Of a stretch of DNA of 7,331 bases, positions 677 through 7,331 are shown in pieces (position 1 is the stretch's first letter; each line of letters opens with the position of its first letter). The notes under the pieces were generated by a model, which was given only the letters and a program-made list of their open reading frames with translations, made no database searches and had not been told where the DNA came from. This DNA comes from JAFGIT01 sp016929465 [NCBI: Candidatus Coatesbacteria bacterium] (GTDB lineage Bacteria > B130-G9): the NCBI GenBank assembly GCA_016929465.1, contig JAFGIT010000333.1, positions 1 to 7,331 on the forward strand, in the 5' to 3' direction. A program made the translations under genes and the position numbers.

Positions 677-705
677 ACTTTAGCCCAGATTCCGAGAAGT
701 GTCAA
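677..705 (-). promoter_or_regulatory. Candidate sigma70 promoter for the beta-helix gene
   Basis: On the minus strand TTGACA (705-700) and TAAAGT (682-677) are separated by exactly 17 bases. The expected start of transcription is near 670, which gives a leader of about 240 nt before the beta-helix start codon. The leader holds a 6-bp GGCCCA/TGGGCC hairpin (565-581) and a pair of CTGCAG arms (498-503 and 532-537) enclosing TTCCC/GGGAA. I recognise no known riboswitch in it. Confidence 0.5.
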
Positions 706-780: not shown

Positions 781-820
781 AGTACAATGCCGCCCTGAAT
801 GGGCGACACGTGAATAGCCG
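781..820 (-). repeat. Diverged single copy of the dispersed hairpin repeat
   Basis: Read on the minus strand this stretch has CGGCTATTCACGTG, then an inverted repeat CGCCC-ATTCA-GGGCG (805-791), then GCATTG. The same order (CGGCTATTCACATG, palindrome ATGCCC..GGGCAT, then TTGAGG) occurs at 7209-7240 and 6405-6440 on the plus strand. About 14 bases after GCATTG an AACGAGAA resembles the ACGAGAGC of the other copies. The order of blocks rather than strict identity supports homology. Confidence 0.5.
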
Positions 821-836
821 CGTGTGAAACGCGCGG
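818..836 (-). terminator. Weak hairpin downstream of feoB
   Basis: Seven-base stem (CCGCGTG paired with CGCGCGG, one G-T pair) around a five-base loop, 17 bases past the feoB stop codon. There is no T-run after it on the minus strand, so if it ends the feo transcript it is not a classical intrinsic terminator. It may only be part of the neighbouring repeat. Confidence 0.25.
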
Positions 837-852
837 AATCAGGGCGCTTGTC

Positions 853-3003
853 TCAATGAATCCCTATCCGGAAGAAGCTGCCAACCTGGTATATGGCGAA
901 CGAGACTATCCAGGCGACACTCGTCGTGTATGTTAGGACGAAAAGCGGCCACTTATAGGTGCCGGTCTCCTTCCTCACGGTCGCGATCGCCGCAAAGCAG
1001 GGCAAATAGAGAAGAGAGAAGACCATCAGCGAGAATGCTGCGAGCGGCGTATAGACCTTTCTGCCGTTCGGCCACTTCGCGCTCTGGAGCCGCTCCCTCA
1101 GCGTGTGCGACTCCTCGTTCGCTTCGGAAACCGAATAGAGAGTCCCGAGCGTCGAGACCACGACCTCCTTCGCGACCAATCCACCGATCAATGCCACTCC
1201 AATCCGCCAGTCGAAGCCAAGCGGCTCAATCAGCGGCTCTATGACCCTTCCCAGCCTGCCTGCGTAGCTGGAACGCAGCTTGTCCGCGTGCATTCTCGCC
1301 TCGATCTCCGCGATACGGCCTTCGACCTCATCTCCCTTGGCATCTTGTGCCTTCGCCATCTCCGCCTCATAATCGAACGAGTAGTCGTGGTCCCAGGGGA
1401 AACTGCTGAGGAACCATATCAGGACTGAGCCCAGGAGGATGATCGTCCCCGCTTTCTTGAGGTACATCCGCACCTGCTCCCAGGTCTGAAGCAGGACCCC
1501 GCGGACAGTCGGCACGCGATACGGCGGTAGCTCCATCACGAGCGGCGATGCCTCTCCCTTCAGGACGAATTTTCGAAGCAATTTCGCGGAGACAAGTGCA
1601 GCCAATATGCCGAGCCCATACAGCGTGAATAGGATCGTGCCCCCGTTCTTGGCGAAGAAGGCGCCTATGAAAAGGCTGTAGATGGGGAGGCGTGCACCGC
1701 AGGACATGAAAGGAAGCACGAGAATCGTCGCGAGCCGGTCCCGTCTGTCGGGGATGATGCGGCAGGCCATGATGCCCGGCACGGTGCAGCCGAAGCCAAG
1801 GATCATCGGGATAAATGACTGGCCGTGCAGACCGATCTTGTGCATGTATCCGTCCATTATGAATGCAGCCCTCGCCATGTAGCCGGTGCCCTCCAGGACC
1901 GCCATGAATAGGAACAAAAGCCCAATGATCGGCACAAAGACCAACACTCCCCCGACCCCGCCAATTATTCCATCCACGACCAGGCTGTGAATTGCACTTC
2001 CCGCTGTCAGGAAGCGGCCTACCGCGTTGCCGAGTATCTCGAAGAGGCTCTCGATCCAGCCCATGAATGGCTCGCTCGCGACAAACGTGAACTTGAACAT
2101 GAGCCACATAAGCGCCAGGAAAATCGGCAGGCCCAGGAGTTTGTTCGTCATGACCGCGTCGATGCGGTCCGACCAGTCGTGCCTGAGCTCGACAGTCGTC
2201 TTGACCGCCTCCTGGCAGGCACCCGAGATAAAGCCATAGCGCCGCTCAGCCATGACCGTCTCAGGGCTGTCACCGGCGATCTTCTGTATGTACTCGACGC
2301 CCTCCTTCACCGCCTCGGCGAGTGCCGGCGATTTCACGTCTCCGAAGACCCTGCTGTCGTTCTCCAGCAGCTTGAGTGCCACCCACCTCGCGGGTCGCCT
2401 TCCTGTAAAGCCCGGGTCGGCTTTCACGAGCGGCTCGATGCCATCGATCAGCCGGTCGATCCGCTTTCCGTAGCTGACTTTCACCGGATGATATTTGATC
2501 TCACCTCTCGCGACCTTCAAGGCCGTCTCGAGAAGCTCCTCATGCCCTTTGCCCTTGTGCCCTACGGTCAGCACTATCGGGGCGCCGAAGAGCTTCGACA
2601 GGAGCTCCAGGTCGAAATTCACCCCACGCTGCTTTGCGACGTCGCTCATGTTGAACGCGAGCAGGAGGGGAACACCTAGCTCTATAAGCTGCACAGCGAG
2701 GTAGAGATTCCGCTCCAGGTTCGAAGCGTCGATGACATCGATAACGACGTTCGGCTTCTCATTTATCAGATAGTCGCGAGCGACGAGCTCCTCGACAGAA
2801 TACGCGGTCAGGCTATAGATGCCCGGAAGATCGACCACGTTGACGGTCTGCCCGTCGCAGCACTTGCTCCCTTCCTTCTTCTCGACCGTTACCCCGGGGT
2901 AGTTCCCGACGCGTTGACGGGCGCCGGTGATGCTGTTGAATATGGTCGTCTTGCCGGAGTTCGGGTTGCCGGCGAGCGCTATCTTGATGACGTTATCCTG
3001 CAT
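853..3003 (-). CDS. feoB: Ferrous iron transport GTPase/permease FeoB
   Basis: 716-residue inner-membrane Fe(II) importer, within the usual FeoB length of about 700-770. The N-terminal G domain shows G1 GNPNSGKT (12-19), the G2 threonine in PGVTVE (T39), G3 DLPG (58-61) and G4 NMSD (118-121). A helical, GDI-like linker fills roughly 165-280. The membrane domain starts after MTNKLLGLPIF (285-295). It carries the two FeoB gate signatures: GFGCTVPGIMACR (403-415, with C406 and C414) and PFMSCGARLPIYSLF (431-445, with C435). A charged cytoplasmic segment (about 538-600) separates the last membrane segments, as in other FeoB proteins. No C-terminal FeoC-like helix-turn-helix is fused. Start ATG at 3003 lies just before the conserved KIALAGNPNSGKTT block; no strong Shine-Dalgarno is visible. 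It is 72 bases downstream of feoA, with an operator-like palindrome in the gap, so it may have its own iron-controlled promoter as well as read-through from feoA. Confidence 0.97.
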   Translation of the reverse strand: MQDNVIKIALAGNPNSGKTTIFNSITGARQRVGNYPGVTVEKKEGSKCCDGQTVNVVDLPGIYSLTAYSVEELVARDYLINEKPNVVIDVIDASNLERNLYLAVQLIELGVPLLLAFNMSDVAKQRGVNFDLELLSKLFGAPIVLTVGHKGKGHEELLETALKVARGEIKYHPVKVSYGKRIDRLIDGIEPLVKADPGFTGRRPARWVALKLLENDSRVFGDVKSPALAEAVKEGVEYIQKIAGDSPETVMAERRYGFISGACQEAVKTTVELRHDWSDRIDAVMTNKLLGLPIFLALMWLMFKFTFVASEPFMGWIESLFEILGNAVGRFLTAGSAIHSLVVDGIIGGVGGVLVFVPIIGLLFLFMAVLEGTGYMARAAFIMDGYMHKIGLHGQSFIPMILGFGCTVPGIMACRIIPDRRDRLATILVLPFMSCGARLPIYSLFIGAFFAKNGGTILFTLYGLGILAALVSAKLLRKFVLKGEASPLVMELPPYRVPTVRGVLLQTWEQVRMYLKKAGTIILLGSVLIWFLSSFPWDHDYSFDYEAEMAKAQDAKGDEVEGRIAEIEARMHADKLRSSYAGRLGRVIEPLIEPLGFDWRIGVALIGGLVAKEVVVSTLGTLYSVSEANEESHTLRERLQSAKWPNGRKVYTPLAAFSLMVFSLLYLPCFAAIATVRKETGTYKWPLFVLTYTTSVAWIVSFAIYQVGSFFRIGIH

Positions 3004-3027
3004 GATTCCGCTGCGGTTTTCTAGGCG

Positions 3028-3055
3028 ATCATAAAACTGTTAGGCGCACCTAACA
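3028..3055 (-). promoter_or_regulatory. DtxR-type operator and possible promoter upstream of feoB
   Basis: A perfect 7-bp inverted repeat with a 4-base centre, TGTTAGGCGCACCTAACA on the plus strand, spans 3038-3055. TTAGG/CCTAA arms are typical of DtxR/IdeR-family operators, though the spacing here is shorter than in the classical 19-bp IdeR box. It matches the palindrome at the regulator's own promoter at 12 of 18 positions. On the minus strand TATGAT (3033-3028) could be the -10; the operator would then cover the -35 region, for which I see only a poor hexamer. Binding would block feoB transcription when metal is plentiful. Confidence 0.65.
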
Positions 3056-3063
3056 TATTCACC

Positions 3064-3085
3064 AAAAAAAATCGATCACTCGACC
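3064..3085 (-). terminator. Possible weak terminator/attenuator at the end of feoA
   Basis: On the minus strand a short stem (TCGA-GTGA-TCGA, extendable by two G-T pairs) overlaps the feoA stop codon and runs straight into eight T residues (3071-3064). The stem is weak, so at most partial termination between feoA and feoB is suggested. Confidence 0.3.
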
Positions 3086-3303
3086 ATCATTTTCATCGCG
3101 ATGCCGCGGCCCAGAATAACCTTGCTGTCCTTGACCATCACGACCATCGGCCCCGCGAAGGTGGTGTTGACCACCATGAGCTCCGCGCCGGGCACGATGC
3201 CCATCGCGCTGAGCCGGCATTTCAGGCCCTGGCCGGCGTTGACGCTTCTCAGTTTGACCTTCTGACCAAGTTTTACCGCTGTTAGTGGCACTTTATTGTC
3301 CAT
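3076..3303 (-). CDS. feoA: FeoA-family SH3-like iron transport accessory protein
   Basis: 75 residues, the usual size for a stand-alone FeoA. The family pattern is clear: a leading beta strand with PLTAVKLGQKVKLRSV (6-21), then L..MGIVPGAEL (31-42), the GPMVVMVKDSKVILGRG core (51-67) and a short final strand. FeoA is a small cytoplasmic SH3-like protein thought to bind FeoB and modulate Fe(II) transport. It sits between the regulator (105-base gap) and feoB (72-base gap), all on the same strand. I see no TTAGG palindrome directly upstream, so it is probably transcribed from the regulator promoter. A 5-bp hairpin (3334-3348) is the only structure I noticed in the gap. The ATG at 3303 has only a weak purine stretch before it. 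Confidence 0.93.
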   Translation of the reverse strand: MDNKVPLTAVKLGQKVKLRSVNAGQGLKCRLSAMGIVPGAELMVVNTTFAGPMVVMVKDSKVILGRGIAMKMMVE

Positions 3304-3408
3304 TTCTCTATCGTGCGGAAACAGGCTCTATCACGTCTCGATCAGACGCGGCCCATTCCCCGATGTTATCTTAATCGATAAGTCTCTCAATATTCCTCGA
3401 CCGATTCT

Positions 3409-3978
3409 TCATTCCCTCTTCTGTGACTTGGCGCCGGCCTTCTTCGACGTCGCCGCCGCGGCGCAGGTCATCTGCTTCTCCTTCAACCTCTCCAAAAGGT
3501 CGGTCAAGCATTTGACGCATAGGCCCCCGCTCTCGCCCTTGTCGCAATAGTCAGAAAAAATCTCGAGCCAATCGGTTCCCGCCCTCGGGCACCTCTCCAC
3601 GAATTCCGCAAAGCACAGGAACCGTTCTAAAACCTCCCCGGTGATAGCATGTTCCATTTTGCACGCCGCCTCGTCCGCGAGCTTCTCCTCGACCATCAGC
3701 ACATTCACAAGGAACGACTTCAGGACCGAGTGCCGCCGCGCTATGTCGCTCGCTATCTTCCGACCCTCTTCGGTCAGTGTGATGTATTCGTAGGGGTCGT
3801 AATTCACGAGCCCATGCTGAGACAGGTTCTTCAATGCACCCGTCACGGATGACATCGCGACGTCGAGCCTGCATGCTATCTGCTTCGCACGCGCGACCTT
3901 GTGCTCCTGCGAAATATGGTAAATGGCCTCCAGGTAATCCTCCATGGAGGCAGTAATCTCAGTAGTGTTCGCTATCAT
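3409..3978 (-). CDS. DtxR/MntR-family metal-dependent repressor with Cys-containing tail
   Basis: 189 residues. The winged helix spans about 10-75 (SMEDYLEAIYHISQ, then VARAKQIACRLDVAMSSVTGALKNL and a wing ending in YITLTEEG). The metal-binding and dimerisation domain follows (about 76-125) with RRHSVLKSFL and ADEAACKMEHAI. No third SH3-like domain is present; the protein ends with CPRAGTDWLEIFSDYC, then LCVKC, then an Ala/Lys tail. Aligning by eye to DtxR and MntR, the primary site would be D14 (Asp as in MntR; Met10 in DtxR), C106 (Cys102 in DtxR; Glu99 in MntR), E109 and H110. H83 matches the conserved His, but K87 and A101 replace the other DtxR ancillary ligands. Cysteines 130, 145, 154 and 157 could form an extra metal site. 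Being first in a feo cluster with a shared operator argues for iron sensing. Start ATG 3978 fits the predicted transcript start near 4005. Confidence 0.92.
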   Translation of the reverse strand: MIANTTEITASMEDYLEAIYHISQEHKVARAKQIACRLDVAMSSVTGALKNLSQHGLVNYDPYEYITLTEEGRKIASDIARRHSVLKSFLVNVLMVEEKLADEAACKMEHAITGEVLERFLCFAEFVERCPRAGTDWLEIFSDYCDKGESGGLCVKCLTDLLERLKEKQMTCAAAATSKKAGAKSQKRE

Positions 3979-4065: not shown

Positions 4066-4135
4066 GAGGGGCAAAAGGTCAATAGGAAAAAAGGGCAAAG
4101 GGTAAAAAGGGTAAATGAGGGCAAAAAGGTCAATG
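4066..4135. repeat. Purine-rich low-complexity tract with direct repeats
   Basis: About 70 bases almost all A and G on the plus strand. Near-identical blocks GAGGGGCAAAAGGTCAAT (about 4067-4083) and GAGGGCAAAAAGGTCAAT (4117-4134) flank several AAAGGGYAAA-like units. No reading frame here resembles a protein. The strand asymmetry is strong enough to consider slipped or triplex DNA; no function is evident. Confidence 0.6.
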
Positions 4136-4140
4136 CTACC

Positions 4141-4200
4141 TCCAGCCCCAACGGGGCGGCCCAATGATAGCCCCAGGTAAGGCTTCGCCGCAGCCTGGGG
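4141..4200. repeat. REP-like double hairpin
   Basis: Two inverted repeats in tandem: GCCCC-AAC-GGGGC (4145-4157) and CCCCAGG...CCTGGGG (4171-4177 with 4194-4200), the second enclosing a small GGC-TTC-GCC stem. They are separated by GGCCCAATGATAG. This architecture is that of repetitive extragenic palindromes in environmental bacteria. Next to it, minus strand 4222-4206 reads ATTGATTTGATTTGCAT, close to the tail ATTGATTTGAGGGTGCAT of the tandem repeat units at 6411-6560, so a fragment of that family may abut this element. Confidence 0.6.
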
Positions 4201-4268
4201 AATCGATGCAAATCAAATCAATGGGTGGTGGGTGGGGAATCGACCGCATCTATAGATCTCGGGAACGC

Positions 4269-4321: not shown

Positions 4322-4669
4322 ATGATCGATGCGACGAAGGAGATTGAGCCACAGATGGTGCTGGACGAAGCGATACAGCGGGAGATAGTCTCCCGCATAG
4401 TGGGGACCGCGTGTCCGAACAAAATATTCCTATTCGGCTCCGCTGCGAGCGGCGAGATGGGACCAGATAGCGATATCGATCTATTGGTAATACTCCAGGA
4501 CGCGGAGAATCCGCGACAGCAGAGCGTCCGGATACGCCGTCTGCTCCGAGGCATCCCATTCCCGTTCGACATCCTTGTCAGATCGCAGGAGCAATTCGAG
4601 AAGTTCAAGGATGTAGTGGGCTCGATCTTCTACACCGCGATCAAGCACGGCCGGGTTCTGTATGGGTAG
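4322..4669 (+). CDS. MNT-fold nucleotidyltransferase, probable antitoxin
   Basis: 115 residues, the size of minimal nucleotidyltransferases. The core shows IFLFGSAASGEMGPDSDIDLLV (split: FGSAASGE at 38-45, then DSDIDLLV at 49-56), giving the GS motif (39-40) and catalytic D51 and D53. The third acidic residue is D83 in FDILV. The C-terminus GSIFYTAIKHGRVLYG is typical of MNT proteins encoded next to HEPN genes. In characterised type VII toxin-antitoxin pairs such proteins AMPylate and silence a HEPN RNase. Here the next gene is an AbiJ-like protein, not a short HepT. All catalytic residues are present. The start is uncertain: ATG 4322 has no Shine-Dalgarno, while ATG 4355 (M12) has AAGGAG at 4337-4342, twelve bases upstream, and would give a 104-residue protein. 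The pairing with the downstream gene and the antitoxin role are inferred from context. Confidence 0.88.
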   Translation: MIDATKEIEPQMVLDEAIQREIVSRIVGTACPNKIFLFGSAASGEMGPDSDIDLLVILQDAENPRQQSVRIRRLLRGIPFPFDILVRSQEQFEKFKDVVGSIFYTAIKHGRVLYG

Positions 4670-4708
4670 GGATTCCTCTTGCACTGCATTGGTTTCTGGG
4701 GCGGCCAC

Positions 4709-5554
4709 TTGACTCGACTTTTTTCGGAGCAATATGGCTACAAGCCTGTAAGAGAAGGGCCCCAAATGGAGTGTTTGGATGACGCGCTCAGAAGATCGCT
4801 TTGGAATGTCTATTTCCTGCATTTTGTTGAGACACTTGGCCCTGATGAGTACGGCGGTCCATGTTACTACGGGAACATAGGTGACCTGGATGCAGTGCTC
4901 TTGACAGAGATATTCGAAGGCACCTTGGATGTGATTCCGCATCCATCCCAGACATTTGACTTAGTTAAGGACAAGTTTCTCAAGGGTATTTGGTTCGAGG
5001 TTCTCGATCTTATCTTAATCGTATCACGGGAAAGTGAACCTCAACTGGGGCAGGATTTCCGCAAAGAGTGCAATGCTGCATTTCAGAGACATGTATCCGC
5101 CTACCGGTTTGTTGGTGATAGAATCGCGCCAATTACTAATCAGCACGAGATTGCGGAGATCGAGACGGCAATGAAGAGCCCACTTATGGGTGTCCGGGAT
5201 CACATACGAACCGCATTGTCACTGTTTGCGGACCGCGAGAATCCCGACTACCGAAACTCCATGAAGGAGGCAATCTCTGCAGTAGAGGCGATCTGCAAGA
5301 TCATCGCATTCGATGAGAATGCCACGCTTGGGCAGGCGCTGAAGGCGGTGAAGCAGAGGGTAGGACTGCATCCCGCTTTGGAGAGCGGTTTCTCGAGCCT
5401 ATACGGGTACACCTGCAAATCAGATGGTATAAGGCACGGCTTAATGGACGAATCCAACCTGTGTGGGGAGGATGCACGGTATTTTATCATCTCATGCTCT
5501 GCATTTGTGAATTACCTTACCGAAAAGGCACAGAAAGCCGGAATTGAGCTTTAG
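4709..5554 (+). CDS. AbiJ-like abortive-infection protein (AbiJ-NTD4 plus HEPN-like C-terminus)
   Basis: 281 residues from a TTG at 4709. An in-frame TTG at 4679 would add ten residues, but MTRLFSEQYGYKPVRE fits the usual family start and GGGGCGG precedes it. The N-terminal part (1-130) has FSEQYGYKPVRE, then DDALRRSLWN, a pattern I associate with AbiJ N-terminal domain 4. The C-terminal part (about 150-275) is helical, with ADRENPDYRNSMKEAISAVE (174-193), ATLGQALKAV, HPALESGFSSLYGY (221-234), the DGIRHGLMDE block (239-248) and CSAFVNYL. The conserved RNSMKEAISAVE and IRH elements suggest a HEPN-like domain, but I do not see a plain R-x4-6-H motif. AbiJ-type proteins belong to phage-induced abortive infection; RNase activity is inferred only. 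The gene follows the nucleotidyltransferase by 39 bases (9 if the upstream TTG is used), so they are probably co-transcribed. By eye its base use is more A+T rich than feo, hinting at transfer. Confidence 0.8.
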   Translation: MTRLFSEQYGYKPVREGPQMECLDDALRRSLWNVYFLHFVETLGPDEYGGPCYYGNIGDLDAVLLTEIFEGTLDVIPHPSQTFDLVKDKFLKGIWFEVLDLILIVSRESEPQLGQDFRKECNAAFQRHVSAYRFVGDRIAPITNQHEIAEIETAMKSPLMGVRDHIRTALSLFADRENPDYRNSMKEAISAVEAICKIIAFDENATLGQALKAVKQRVGLHPALESGFSSLYGYTCKSDGIRHGLMDESNLCGEDARYFIISCSAFVNYLTEKAQKAGIEL

Positions 5555-5607: not shown

Positions 5608-5638
5608 GGCTTAGCGCGGTGCCAGGTCACCGCAAGCC
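5608..5638. repeat. Nested hairpin, REP-like
   Basis: An outer stem GGCTT/AAGCC encloses an inner perfect stem GCGGTG/CACCGC around CCAGGT, with a 3-base bulge. It lies directly after the terminator-like hairpin and shortly before the 3' end of the methyltransferase gene. It is probably part of an intergenic repeat, though only one copy is in the window. Confidence 0.45.
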
Positions 5639-5674
5639 AAAGCGGCGAGAGCTCACCGCACTCCAGATGGCTTC

Positions 5675-6308: not shown

Positions 6309-6359
6309 TTCCCCCTCCCGCCAATCGCTTCACGATTGGCGGGAGGGGGAAGTTTTTTT
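6309..6359 (+). terminator. Very strong terminator-like hairpin with T7, head of the left repeat module
   Basis: A perfect 19-bp stem (6309-6327 with 6333-6351) around loop CTTCA, followed by G and seven T residues (6353-6359). On the plus strand this has every mark of a rho-independent terminator, yet no plus-strand gene ends within 750 bases upstream. On the minus strand it lies upstream of the methyltransferase promoter and lacks a T-run. A second hairpin plus T-run precedes the second copy of the repeat head (7136-7165), so it may belong to the repeat module rather than to a gene. Confidence 0.75.
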
Positions 6360-6373
6360 GCGGCTGCTTCGGA

Positions 6374-6618
6374 TCCGTAGGCTTGGCCTTTGGCCTGCGC
6401 ACAACGGCTATTCATATAATGCCCCGTCGGGGCATTGAGGGATAAGAGCAGATTGATTTGAGGGTGCATTCCGCCTGTATCGTGGGGTCATTCATGTGAT
6501 GTCCCATCGGGTATTGAAGGACGAGAGCAGATTGATTTGAGGGTGCATCCTGCTGGCACCATACGCTCAGCACATGAGCCTCTTAGGGGCATTGAAGGAG
6601 CAAGGCAGATCAATTAAG
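6374..6618 (+). repeat. Left repeat array: 41-bp head plus three tandem hairpin units of about 79 bp
   Basis: The head (6374-6414, beginning TCCGTAGGCTTGGCC) is identical over 41 bases to 7177-7217. Units follow with palindromes starting at 6419 (ATGCCCC-GTC-GGGGCAT, perfect), 6499 (degenerate) and 6574 (more degenerate), so the spacing is 80 and 75. Each palindrome is followed by TTGARGG and a conserved run such as GAGAGCAGATTGATTTGA, then GGGTGCATYC; about 20 less conserved bases lead into the next unit. No coding potential is apparent. The next 141 bases (6619-6759) hold only a small GAGAT/ATCTC hairpin (6665-6679) and no promoter I would trust. Confidence 0.85.
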
Positions 6619-6759
6619 AAGGTATTTATTGAGATCACTTCCAGGCCCGCGCTCACCGGCATCTGAGATCGCACATCTCGCGGTCGAATTGCCTGACCGT
6701 ATCGAGCGTTTCTGTAGGATTGGAATACGTGCTGTGACGCTAACAAAGGAACGAGAATC

Positions 6760-7083
6760 GTGAATGCTGAAGCAATAGCGGCGATTGATGCTATCGCCCC
6801 CAGAGAGAAGATTGTCGAGTTCTGCCGTCGTTGGCAGATCATCGAGTTTGCCCTCTTCGGTTCGGTGGTCAGGGATGACTTTGGGCCTGACAGCGACGTT
6901 GATGTTCTCGTGACATTCGAGCCGGATGCTCCCTGGAGCCTGCTCGAGCTCGTCGAGATGCAGGCGGAGCTCAAGGGCATTTTCGGCAGGGAAGTGGACC
7001 TGGTCGAGGAGGATGCCATCAGGAATCCGTACAGAAGGCGGTCAATCCTTCGCGACAAAGAGGTCATATATGCCGCAGAATGA
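6760..7083 (+). CDS. MntA-like minimal nucleotidyltransferase antitoxin, partner truncated
   Basis: 107 residues from GTG 6760, supported by AAAGGA at 6745-6750 with a 9-base spacer. The MNT core is intact: EFALFGSVVRDDFGPDSDVD (29-48) with GS at 34-35 and D46 and D48, and a third acidic residue D80 in REVDLVEED. The end IRNPYRRRSILRDKEVIYAAE (split: NPYRRRSIL, then EVIYAAE) is typical of the antitoxin of MntA/HepT type VII toxin-antitoxin pairs, which AMPylates the HEPN RNase HepT. The start of a hepT-like frame overlaps the last codons of this gene, as expected for such an operon, but that frame is cut after about 17 codons by a terminator-like hairpin and repeat array. The protein itself is complete and probably functional as an orphan. 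It shares little with the other MNT protein in the window beyond the catalytic motif. Confidence 0.9.
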   Translation: MNAEAIAAIDAIAPREKIVEFCRRWQIIEFALFGSVVRDDFGPDSDVDVLVTFEPDAPWSLLELVEMQAELKGIFGREVDLVEEDAIRNPYRRRSILRDKEVIYAAE

Positions 7084-7183
7084 AAGGGATGCGGCCCTGA
7101 TATGGGACATGGTTCAGGCCGGTGGCGTTTCTGTGCAGCCCTTTCAGGGCTGTTTTTCTTTTTTTGTTTGTGTCTGTCCGTAG
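7070..7183 (+). pseudogene. hepT-like HEPN toxin gene, truncated remnant
   Basis: ATG 7070 overlaps the end of the nucleotidyltransferase gene by 14 bases in a different frame, with AGAGG at 7059-7063. The first residues MPQNERDAALIWDMVQAG look like the N-terminus of HepT/DUF86 HEPN proteins (family-type start with 'RDAA.LWDML.AA'). From about 7120 the frame reads into a hairpin, T-run and repeat head (GVSVQPFQGCFSFFVCVCP) and stops at TAG 7181-7183. The helix bearing the catalytic R-x4-6-H motif is absent, so no active toxin is made from here. Only some 17-18 codons support the family assignment, so the call rests on both the sequence and the operon position. Confidence 0.65.
7136..7165 (+). 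terminator. Rho-independent terminator, head of the right repeat module
   Basis: CAGCCCT-TTC-AGGGCTG, a perfect 7-bp stem with a 3-base loop, then TTTTTCTTTTTTT. It lies 52 bases after the nucleotidyltransferase stop and would end that transcript. It sits 11 bases before the 41-bp repeat head, in the same position as the large hairpin before the left array. Confidence 0.85.
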
Positions 7184-7331
7184 GCTTGGCCTTTGGCCTG
7201 CGCACAACGGCTATTCACATGATGCCCCTTAAGGGCATTGAGGAACGAGAGCAGATTTATTTGCGATGCATCCGGCCTTCACCATCCGATCATTCACGGG
7301 ATGCCCGTTGGGGCATTGAGGGACGAGAGCA
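7177..7331 (+). repeat. Right repeat array: identical 41-bp head plus at least two units, runs off the window
   Basis: Head 7177-7217 is identical to 6374-6414 (offset 803). Palindromes start at 7222 (ATGCCC-CTTAA-GGGCAT) and 7301 (ATGCCC-GTTGG-GGCAT, imperfect), a spacing of 79 bases. Each is followed by TTGAGGRACGAGAGCA, as in the left array. The orientation is the same as on the left. The array continues beyond position 7331, so its full unit number is unknown. Confidence 0.85.

What the first reader, a model, noticed from the sequence alone, without database searches (positions are those of the whole stretch)
6309..7331. Composite repeat module: terminator-like hairpin plus T-run, 41-bp head, then tandem ~79-bp hairpin units, present twice in the same orientation
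Two arrays 803 bp apart share a 41-bp identical head, the same unit sequence and spacing (75-80 bp), and each is preceded by a different perfect hairpin plus T-run ending 11-14 bases before the head. The hairpins differ in sequence but keep position, suggesting that the module either targets sites after terminators or carries its own. Each unit bears a palindrome like ATGCCCCGTCGGGGCAT and a conserved flank GAGAGCAGATTGATTTGA. This matches no named repeat that I recognise.
Basis: seen in the sequence. Interest (0 to 1): 0.62.

Follow-up and report, generated by a model that had tools for sequence, protein, structure and literature searches.

The report
Five-hairpin mobile DNA parked near promoters
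The repeated module is a worn piece of a small jumping-DNA family, built of five hairpins, that has spread through the genome of an uncultivated bacterium and whose complete copies often end a fixed short distance in front of gene promoters.

Summary
In detail: two arrays 803 bp apart share an identical 41-bp head and 78-79-bp units, each preceded by a hairpin and T-run. It is no local duplication. The window's genome, related to Candidatus Coatesbacteria, holds 39-40 hairpin-A sites and 52 strong heads.

The parent form is a ~355-bp element: inverted terminus, hairpins C', B', central A, B, C, inverted terminus. Hairpin A has changes on both sides at 13 of 20 pairs. Flanking 8-bp direct repeats match at 7-8 of 8 positions in 4 of 9 two-ended copies (0 of 20,000 permutations as good). 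The terminus also ends fragments of an ISKra4-like insertion sequence. I read it as a MITE; the window arrays are truncated, internally amplified copies.

Termini of this type lie 14-17 bp from a TTGACA-like box in 19 of 41 cases in four genomes, against 2.0% of control places. Related arms flank an IS200-type (Y1) transposase gene in three of four family genomes, so the arms look REP-like. Terminator action is not shown: 19 of 40 hairpins have a T-run. No intact transposase for the termini was found.

The parts
6309..6351 (+). Hairpin A (central hairpin of the parent element), CAATCGC/CGATTG core
   Evidence: perfect 19-nt arms; model R1 67.7 bits (this copy is one of the 21 the model was built from); 13 of 20 pairs with changes on both sides across 21 copies
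6354..6360 (+). T-run after hairpin A
   Evidence: sequence; a run of 4 or more T in 19 of 40 copies
6374..6407 (+). Hairpin B of copy 1 (CCG...CGG, followed by CTAT; on the other strand ATAG + palindrome)
   Evidence: model R2, 96.6 bits (a training copy); alignment of 25 copies
6419..6435 (+). Hairpin C of copy 1 (ATGCCCC GTC GGGGCAT)
6421..6615 (+). Three tandem hairpin-C-plus-tail units (starts 6421, 6500, 6578)
   Evidence: family D1
7070..7120 (+). Start of a HepT-like (HEPN) partner gene of the nucleotidyltransferase 6760-7083, apparently broken off where copy 2 begins
   Evidence: 8 of 17 codons identical by eye to the start of the gene after the homologous nucleotidyltransferase in G002, which is PF01934, E 1.7e-13; the window fragment itself (37 aa) gave no Pfam match
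7136..7152 (+). Proximal hairpin of copy 2 (CAGCCCT TTC AGGGCTG), of the kind found beside the Y1 transposase gene
   Evidence: compare by eye
7153..7165 (+). T-runs after the copy-2 hairpin
7177..7256 (+). Head of copy 2 (hairpins B and C)
   Evidence: R2 88.8 bits (a training copy)
7224..7331 (+). Two tandem units of array 2 (starts 7224, 7303), cut by the contig end
722..746 (-). Inverted terminus of a third, left-arm-only copy
   Evidence: TTGCCTACAATTTTGAGTCGCACCC on the minus strand; compare
791..836 (-). Hairpins B' (818-836) and C' (791-805) of the left-arm copy
   Evidence: R2 match 773-837 minus, 32.6 bits, E 1.5e-7; sequence
677..705 (-). TTGACA (705-700), 17-nt spacer, TAAAGT (682-677): promoter-like site whose -35 box lies 16 nt outside the terminus
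   Evidence: not among the 41 ends counted
4125..4201 (-). Diverged solitary B/C arm
   Evidence: R2 29.4 bits, E 1.4e-6

Best explanation
The module is a truncated copy of a non-autonomous DNA transposon (MITE) of about 355 bp. SHOWN: complete copies run inverted terminus - tail - hairpin C' - hairpin B' - central hairpin A - hairpin B - hairpin C - tail - inverted terminus; the ends are sharp, and part of the two-ended copies are flanked by 8-bp direct repeats; the same terminus ends fragments of an ISKra4-like insertion sequence; complete and partial copies are scattered over many contigs. INFERRED: an ISKra4-type DDE transposase moves the element in trans; it prefers sites about 16 bp upstream of the -35 box of promoters; the hairpin arms descend from a REP-like Y1-transposase system and are kept as folded single strands or as transcripts; copies then decay by losing the left arm and half of hairpin A, and the hairpin-C unit can multiply in place. 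The two window arrays are such decayed right-arm copies.
For: Dispersed copies. Common architecture: in 20 copies with a left arm picked by eye, the terminus was found at up to 6 mismatches on the left in 13 of 20 (135-144 nt from hairpin A) and on the right in 7 of 20 (162-165 nt). Flanking repeats: of 15 copies tested, 9 had both ends called; matches 7, 8, 2, 2, 7, 2, 5, 4, 8 of 8, mean 5.0 against 2.3 after permutation, 0 of 20,000 as high; one copy with 2 (L024) matches 7 when slid by one base. Terminus shared with an IS end in G000, 85% identical to a G002 stretch whose codons match ISKra4 positions 388-421, E 7.4e-8. Same five-hairpin order in five G001 copies, another genus, with a different terminus; 2 of 4 two-ended copies there have an exact 8-bp repeat. 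A whole copy folds at z = -6.6 with the termini paired and hairpins C', B', A, B and C formed. Covariation of hairpin A. Copy 2 seems to interrupt a HEPN gene.
Against: No complete ISKra4 transposase was found in the four family genomes: 1 of 4 has a match, over 34 C-terminal positions, 33 bits against a cut-off of 205. Window copy 1 has no terminus on either side; copy 2 is cut by the contig end. Five of nine two-ended copies have fewer than 7 of 8 matches in register (2, 2, 2, 4, 5). The G001 repeats alone are not significant: 3 of 24 pairings, the true one included, score as high. Six of 15 copies were dropped from the test because one or both ends were weak. Hairpin A was not found in G002 or G003 (150 candidates scored in each). 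No empty site was compared, since the relatives are other genera.
Confidence: 0.7

Rival explanations
1. The repeats are REP/REPIN-like single-strand elements moved by the Y1 (IS200-type) transposase: hairpin B is an RTAG-tagged palindrome and two inverted arms form a dimer around a spacer (hairpin A).
For: Y1 homologues occur in G000, G001 and G002 and each is flanked by B/C arms, on both sides in inverted orientation in G000 and G001, on one side in G002. The best R2 match of G002 is the arm next to its Y1 gene. Of 25 aligned heads the other strand reads GTAG in 11, ATAG in 13 and TTAG in 1 just before the palindrome. Published REP dimers with structured spacers, and tyrosine transposase genes flanked by REPs or TIRs (PMC3733652; abstract and two sections read).
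Against: Y1 transposition makes no target duplication (recalled), yet 8-bp repeats lie at the termini outside the arms. The Y1 protein scores 28.9 against the RAYT cut-off of 80 and passes the IS200/IS605 cut-off (60.8, cut-off 55). G003 has 49 R2 matches but no Y1 homologue at E 0.001, though it is only 83% complete.
Confidence: 0.2
2. The module is a structured transcript or terminator kept by selection; compensatory changes reflect RNA function.
For: Strong pairing and covariation; T-run after the stem in 19 of 40; six sites lie 9-57 nt after the end of a same-strand gene (L015, L027, L058, L054, L012 and window copy 2).
Against: 21 of 40 lack a run of 4 T, two of them cut at a contig edge; 17 of 29 called left-hand genes point away; no Rfam match at gathering score; deletion derivatives.
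Confidence: 0.07
3. Not exclusive of the others: hairpin A's compensatory changes come from palindrome correction by template switching during replication, not from selection on structure.
For: A known mutational route (recalled); changes come in symmetric blocks (by eye).
Against: Not tested. The loop-proximal CAATCGC core stays nearly fixed and recurs in G001, which correction alone does not explain.
Confidence: 0.3

Closest known systems
Bacterial MITEs (non-autonomous derivatives of DDE insertion sequences; e.g. MITEAba12, PMC6382973, search listing only)
   Same: Short, no gene, inverted termini, flanking direct repeats, many dispersed copies, terminus shared with an IS remnant
   Different: Five ordered hairpins with a covarying centre; in G001 the same core with other termini; marked promoter spacing of the ends
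REPs, BIMEs, REPINs and RAYTs; REPtrons and TIRtrons of Di Nocera et al. 2013 (PMC3733652; abstract and the sections on dimers and on transposases read)
   Same: Tagged palindromes in inverted pairs, structured spacers, flanking a Y1 transposase gene; that paper describes degenerate GTAG units joined to unrelated stem-loops as TIRs of such genes
   Different: Here the transposase is of IS200 type by curated score, and the arms sit inside a larger unit with its own termini and 8-bp repeats
ISKra4 family insertion sequences
   Same: An IS fragment with this terminus matches the ISKra4 C-terminus below cut-off
   Different: No full-length transposase seen; the family's usual ends and repeat length are only recalled

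Membership tests
MITE | inverted termini at both ends of a short unit | tested here: met
   both 25-nt ends called in 9 of 15 copies tested; not met for window copy 1, copy 2 cut by the contig end
MITE | target-site duplication | tested here: met
   8 bp; 7-8 of 8 matches in 4 of 9, 0 of 20,000 permutations as good
MITE | termini shared with an autonomous element | tested here: inconclusive
   shared with ISKra4-like C-terminal fragments; no intact transposase found
REP/REPIN of a RAYT | GTAG-tagged palindrome | tested here: inconclusive
   GTAG in 11, ATAG in 13, TTAG in 1 of 25 aligned heads
REP/REPIN of a RAYT | cognate RAYT gene flanked by the repeats | tested here: inconclusive
   Y1 gene flanked by arms in 3 of 3 genomes that have it, but RAYT model score 28.9 against 80
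REP/REPIN of a RAYT | no target-site duplication (recalled as a trait of Y1 transposition) | tested here: not met
   8-bp repeats at the outer ends of 4 of 9 two-ended copies; REP-only copies were not tested
Intrinsic terminator | hairpin followed by a T-run | tested here: inconclusive
   both window copies have it, but only 19 of 40 hairpin-A copies do
Rfam families | match at gathering score | tested here: not met
   0 matches in the window

The most novel reading that the evidence does not exclude
The transposase behind the GGGTGTGACC-type termini reads promoters: it inserts at a set distance (about 16 bp, that is the 8-bp duplication plus about 8 bp) upstream of the -35 box, perhaps by contact with RNA polymerase or a factor bound there, so that it would be a bacterial transposon homing to promoters; the five-hairpin core rides on it.
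Probability: 0.35. Interest if true: 0.8.

Novelty: new variant of a known kind. Interest (0 to 1): 0.55.

Why it matters
It gives an identity to a repeat that is abundant in, and breaks the assembly of, a genome of an uncultivated phylum, joins REP-like hairpin arms and a DDE-type MITE in one element, and offers a testable case of a bacterial element whose ends keep a set distance from promoters in three genera.

Tried and rejected
Local duplication of the window arrays: rejected, 23 further places outside the window with one query and many more by model. Known RNA family: none at gathering score. Exact head pattern in the 84,980-species collection: 0 matches, with the tool's warning that records of the window's own genome may be left out. 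R2 in 37 genomes outside the family: 0 at E 0.001, with strict filters and at most 114 candidates scored per genome. Hairpin-A model in G001, G002, G003: found in G001 only. Fixed promoter spacing for the second terminus type (...GAAAACTCCT): not seen by eye in the five G001 copies. Viral contigs for the nucleotidyltransferase: no relative. HEPN fragment in Pfam and in plasmids: no match, read through the G002 neighbour instead. The other two Y1 genes (C388, C3) have no R2 match at E 0.5 in the stretches L073 and L074. Literature searches for promoter-targeting bacterial MITEs or IS, for ISKra4 with MITEs or terminal repeats, for REPIN/TIRYT and for Coatesbacteria (6 papers) were seen as listings only; nothing listed was about this element. 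The library lacks most subscription journals, so this absence is weak.

Counts are lower bounds: the own-genome model searches scored 150 of 2004 and 150 of 1275 candidates, and many copies sit at contig ends. The gene caller is my own and crude; it misplaced the start of the gene left of window copy 1, so its left neighbour was miscalled. The control places come from G000 stretches only, while the 41 ends come from four genomes. Heads and hairpins were first picked by similarity to the window head.

Full report
The observation. Both arrays are present as described. The window is the whole of contig C58 of a 3.19-Mb, 423-contig genome. Two relatives in the same family can be named, because terminus hits fall at the same contig positions in public records: G003 with Candidatus Coatesbacteria isolate B130_G9, G002 with bacterium isolate AUK292. 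That the window belongs to Coatesbacteria is my inference from this kinship.

The copies. A search with the head found 27 places, 23 outside the window. I aligned 25 heads. In front of 21 of these the hairpin could be aligned as one family; the four left out were window copy 2, L020, L021:1510 and the second L028 copy. It has a nearly fixed CAATCGC/GCGATTG core and an outer stem that changes on both sides together: 13 of 20 pairs with changes on both sides, 38 such cells against a shuffled mean of 9.0, and at most 6 such pairs when the partners are slid. Hairpins B and C pair in 95% of cells but vary little (3 pairs with changes on both sides). Covariance models found 78 matches of hairpin A, that is 39 sites each matched on both strands, and 83 matches of the head; both are lower bounds. 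In the stretches then fetched there are 40 hairpin-A sites, one of them weak (L070), and 52 heads of 60 bits or more.

The complete element. Reading outward from the 40 hairpin-A sites showed a second, inverted arm on the left in about half, with hairpins B' and C'. Both arms end in related termini, TTACCTACAATCTGAGGTCACACCC and a variant: of 20 copies with a left arm, the left terminus was found in 13, 135-144 nt from hairpin A, and the right one in 7, 162-165 nt from it, at up to 6 mismatches. Of 15 copies tested for flanking repeats, six were dropped because one or both ends were weak. In the other nine the 8 bases outside the two ends match at 7, 8, 2, 2, 7, 2, 5, 4 and 8 positions, mean 5.0 against 2.3 for permuted partners, none of 20,000 as high; one of the copies with 2 reaches 7 when slid by a base, four stay without a repeat. 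A whole copy folds with its termini paired and hairpins C', B', A, B and C formed, beside smaller ones, z = -6.6.

Another genus. Five G001 copies keep the order C' - B' - A - B - C, the CAATCGC core included, but carry other termini (...TACGAAAACTCCT). Two of four two-ended copies have exact 8-bp flanking repeats, which is not significant alone: 3 of 24 pairings score as high. Hairpin A was not found in G002 or G003, although both have heads.

What might move it. The terminus also ends fragments of an insertion sequence: G000 contigs C223 and C293 stop inside its last codons, and a related G002 stretch (85% identical) matches the ISKra4 model over positions 388-421, E 7.4e-8, 33 bits against a cut-off of 205. 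Separately, the genome has three Y1 transposase genes. The one on C195 is of IS200 type and lies between two inverted B/C arms. Its homologues in G001 and G002 are also flanked by arms, G001 on both sides and inside an array, G002 on one side with the gene itself cut short; G003 has none. This resembles the REPtron and TIRtron arrangements of Di Nocera and colleagues (PMC3733652; abstract and the sections on dimers and transposases read). I take the termini and their 8-bp repeats as the sign of the last movement, and the arms as REP-like cargo.

Where it sits. I looked outward from 41 of the 42 terminus hits (the place on C82 was not fetched). A TTGACA-like box (at least 5 of 6) begins 14-17 nt away in 19 of 41, against 2.0% of 20,000 non-coding control places in G000 stretches; a box of at least 4 of 6 with a -10 partner in 15 of 41, against 1.2%. 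By genome: G000 10 of 21, G001 3 of 6, G002 5 of 10, G003 1 of 4. The ends are not fully independent, so the binomial p of 1e-21 overstates the case, and 22 of 41 ends show no such box. The left-arm copy in this window, not in that count, has the box at 16 nt and TAAAGT after a 17-nt spacer. I did not see such spacing at the second terminus type of G001 (by eye).

Decay and the window. Fifteen of the 52 strong heads lack a complete hairpin A. Fourteen were looked at by eye: four keep only its 3' half, one is fused to a left terminus, two carry another hairpin (window copy 2 and L051), two start near a contig edge and five show no trace of it. The fifteenth, L065, begins at the contig start. 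Window copy 1 has hairpin A and the right arm, no terminus and two extra hairpin-C units. Window copy 2 has the other hairpin, of the kind beside the Y1 gene, and seems to begin after about the 17th codon of a HEPN partner gene of the nucleotidyltransferase at 6760-7083; this rests on 8 identical residues of 17, and whether it is an insertion or a deletion is open.

Function. Terminator action is possible for single copies but is not the shared trait: 19 of 40 have a T-run, and 17 of 29 called left-hand genes point away from the element. Single-strand recognition by a transposase, RNA function, or palindrome correction by template switching could each explain the covariation; I could not separate them.

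Noticed in passing
window 6760-7120: Nucleotidyltransferase (MNT) gene whose HEPN (HepT-like) partner appears broken off after about 17 codons where repeat copy 2 begins.
   Followed up: partly
window 4322-5554: A second nucleotidyltransferase (4322-4669) next to an AbiJ_NTD4-domain gene (4679-5554): a possible defence pair.
   Followed up: no
window 853-3978: feoB, feoA and DtxR-type regulator cluster on the minus strand.
   Followed up: no
L073 594-1562: A Y1 transposase reading frame whose N-terminal part is a repeated MGFQPMKE-type peptide, apparently hairpin repeats read as protein; RAYT score 79.4 against cut-off 80.
   Followed up: no
window about 5614-5667; L028 near 420 and 750: Another dispersed repeat (GCGCGGTGCCRGGTCACCGCAARCCAAAGCGG...) unrelated to the module.
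   Followed up: no
contigs C226, C381, C178, C213, C214, C223, C293 (L095, L096, L099-L103): These contigs end inside this element or its IS relative, so the repeat probably fragments the assembly and its copy number is underestimated.
   Followed up: partly
L022 upstream of 2061: The left arm of the C45 copy appears interrupted by another inserted element (AGGCTGTCTAATAAGTCGAAA / TTATTAGACAGCCT at its edges).
   Followed up: no
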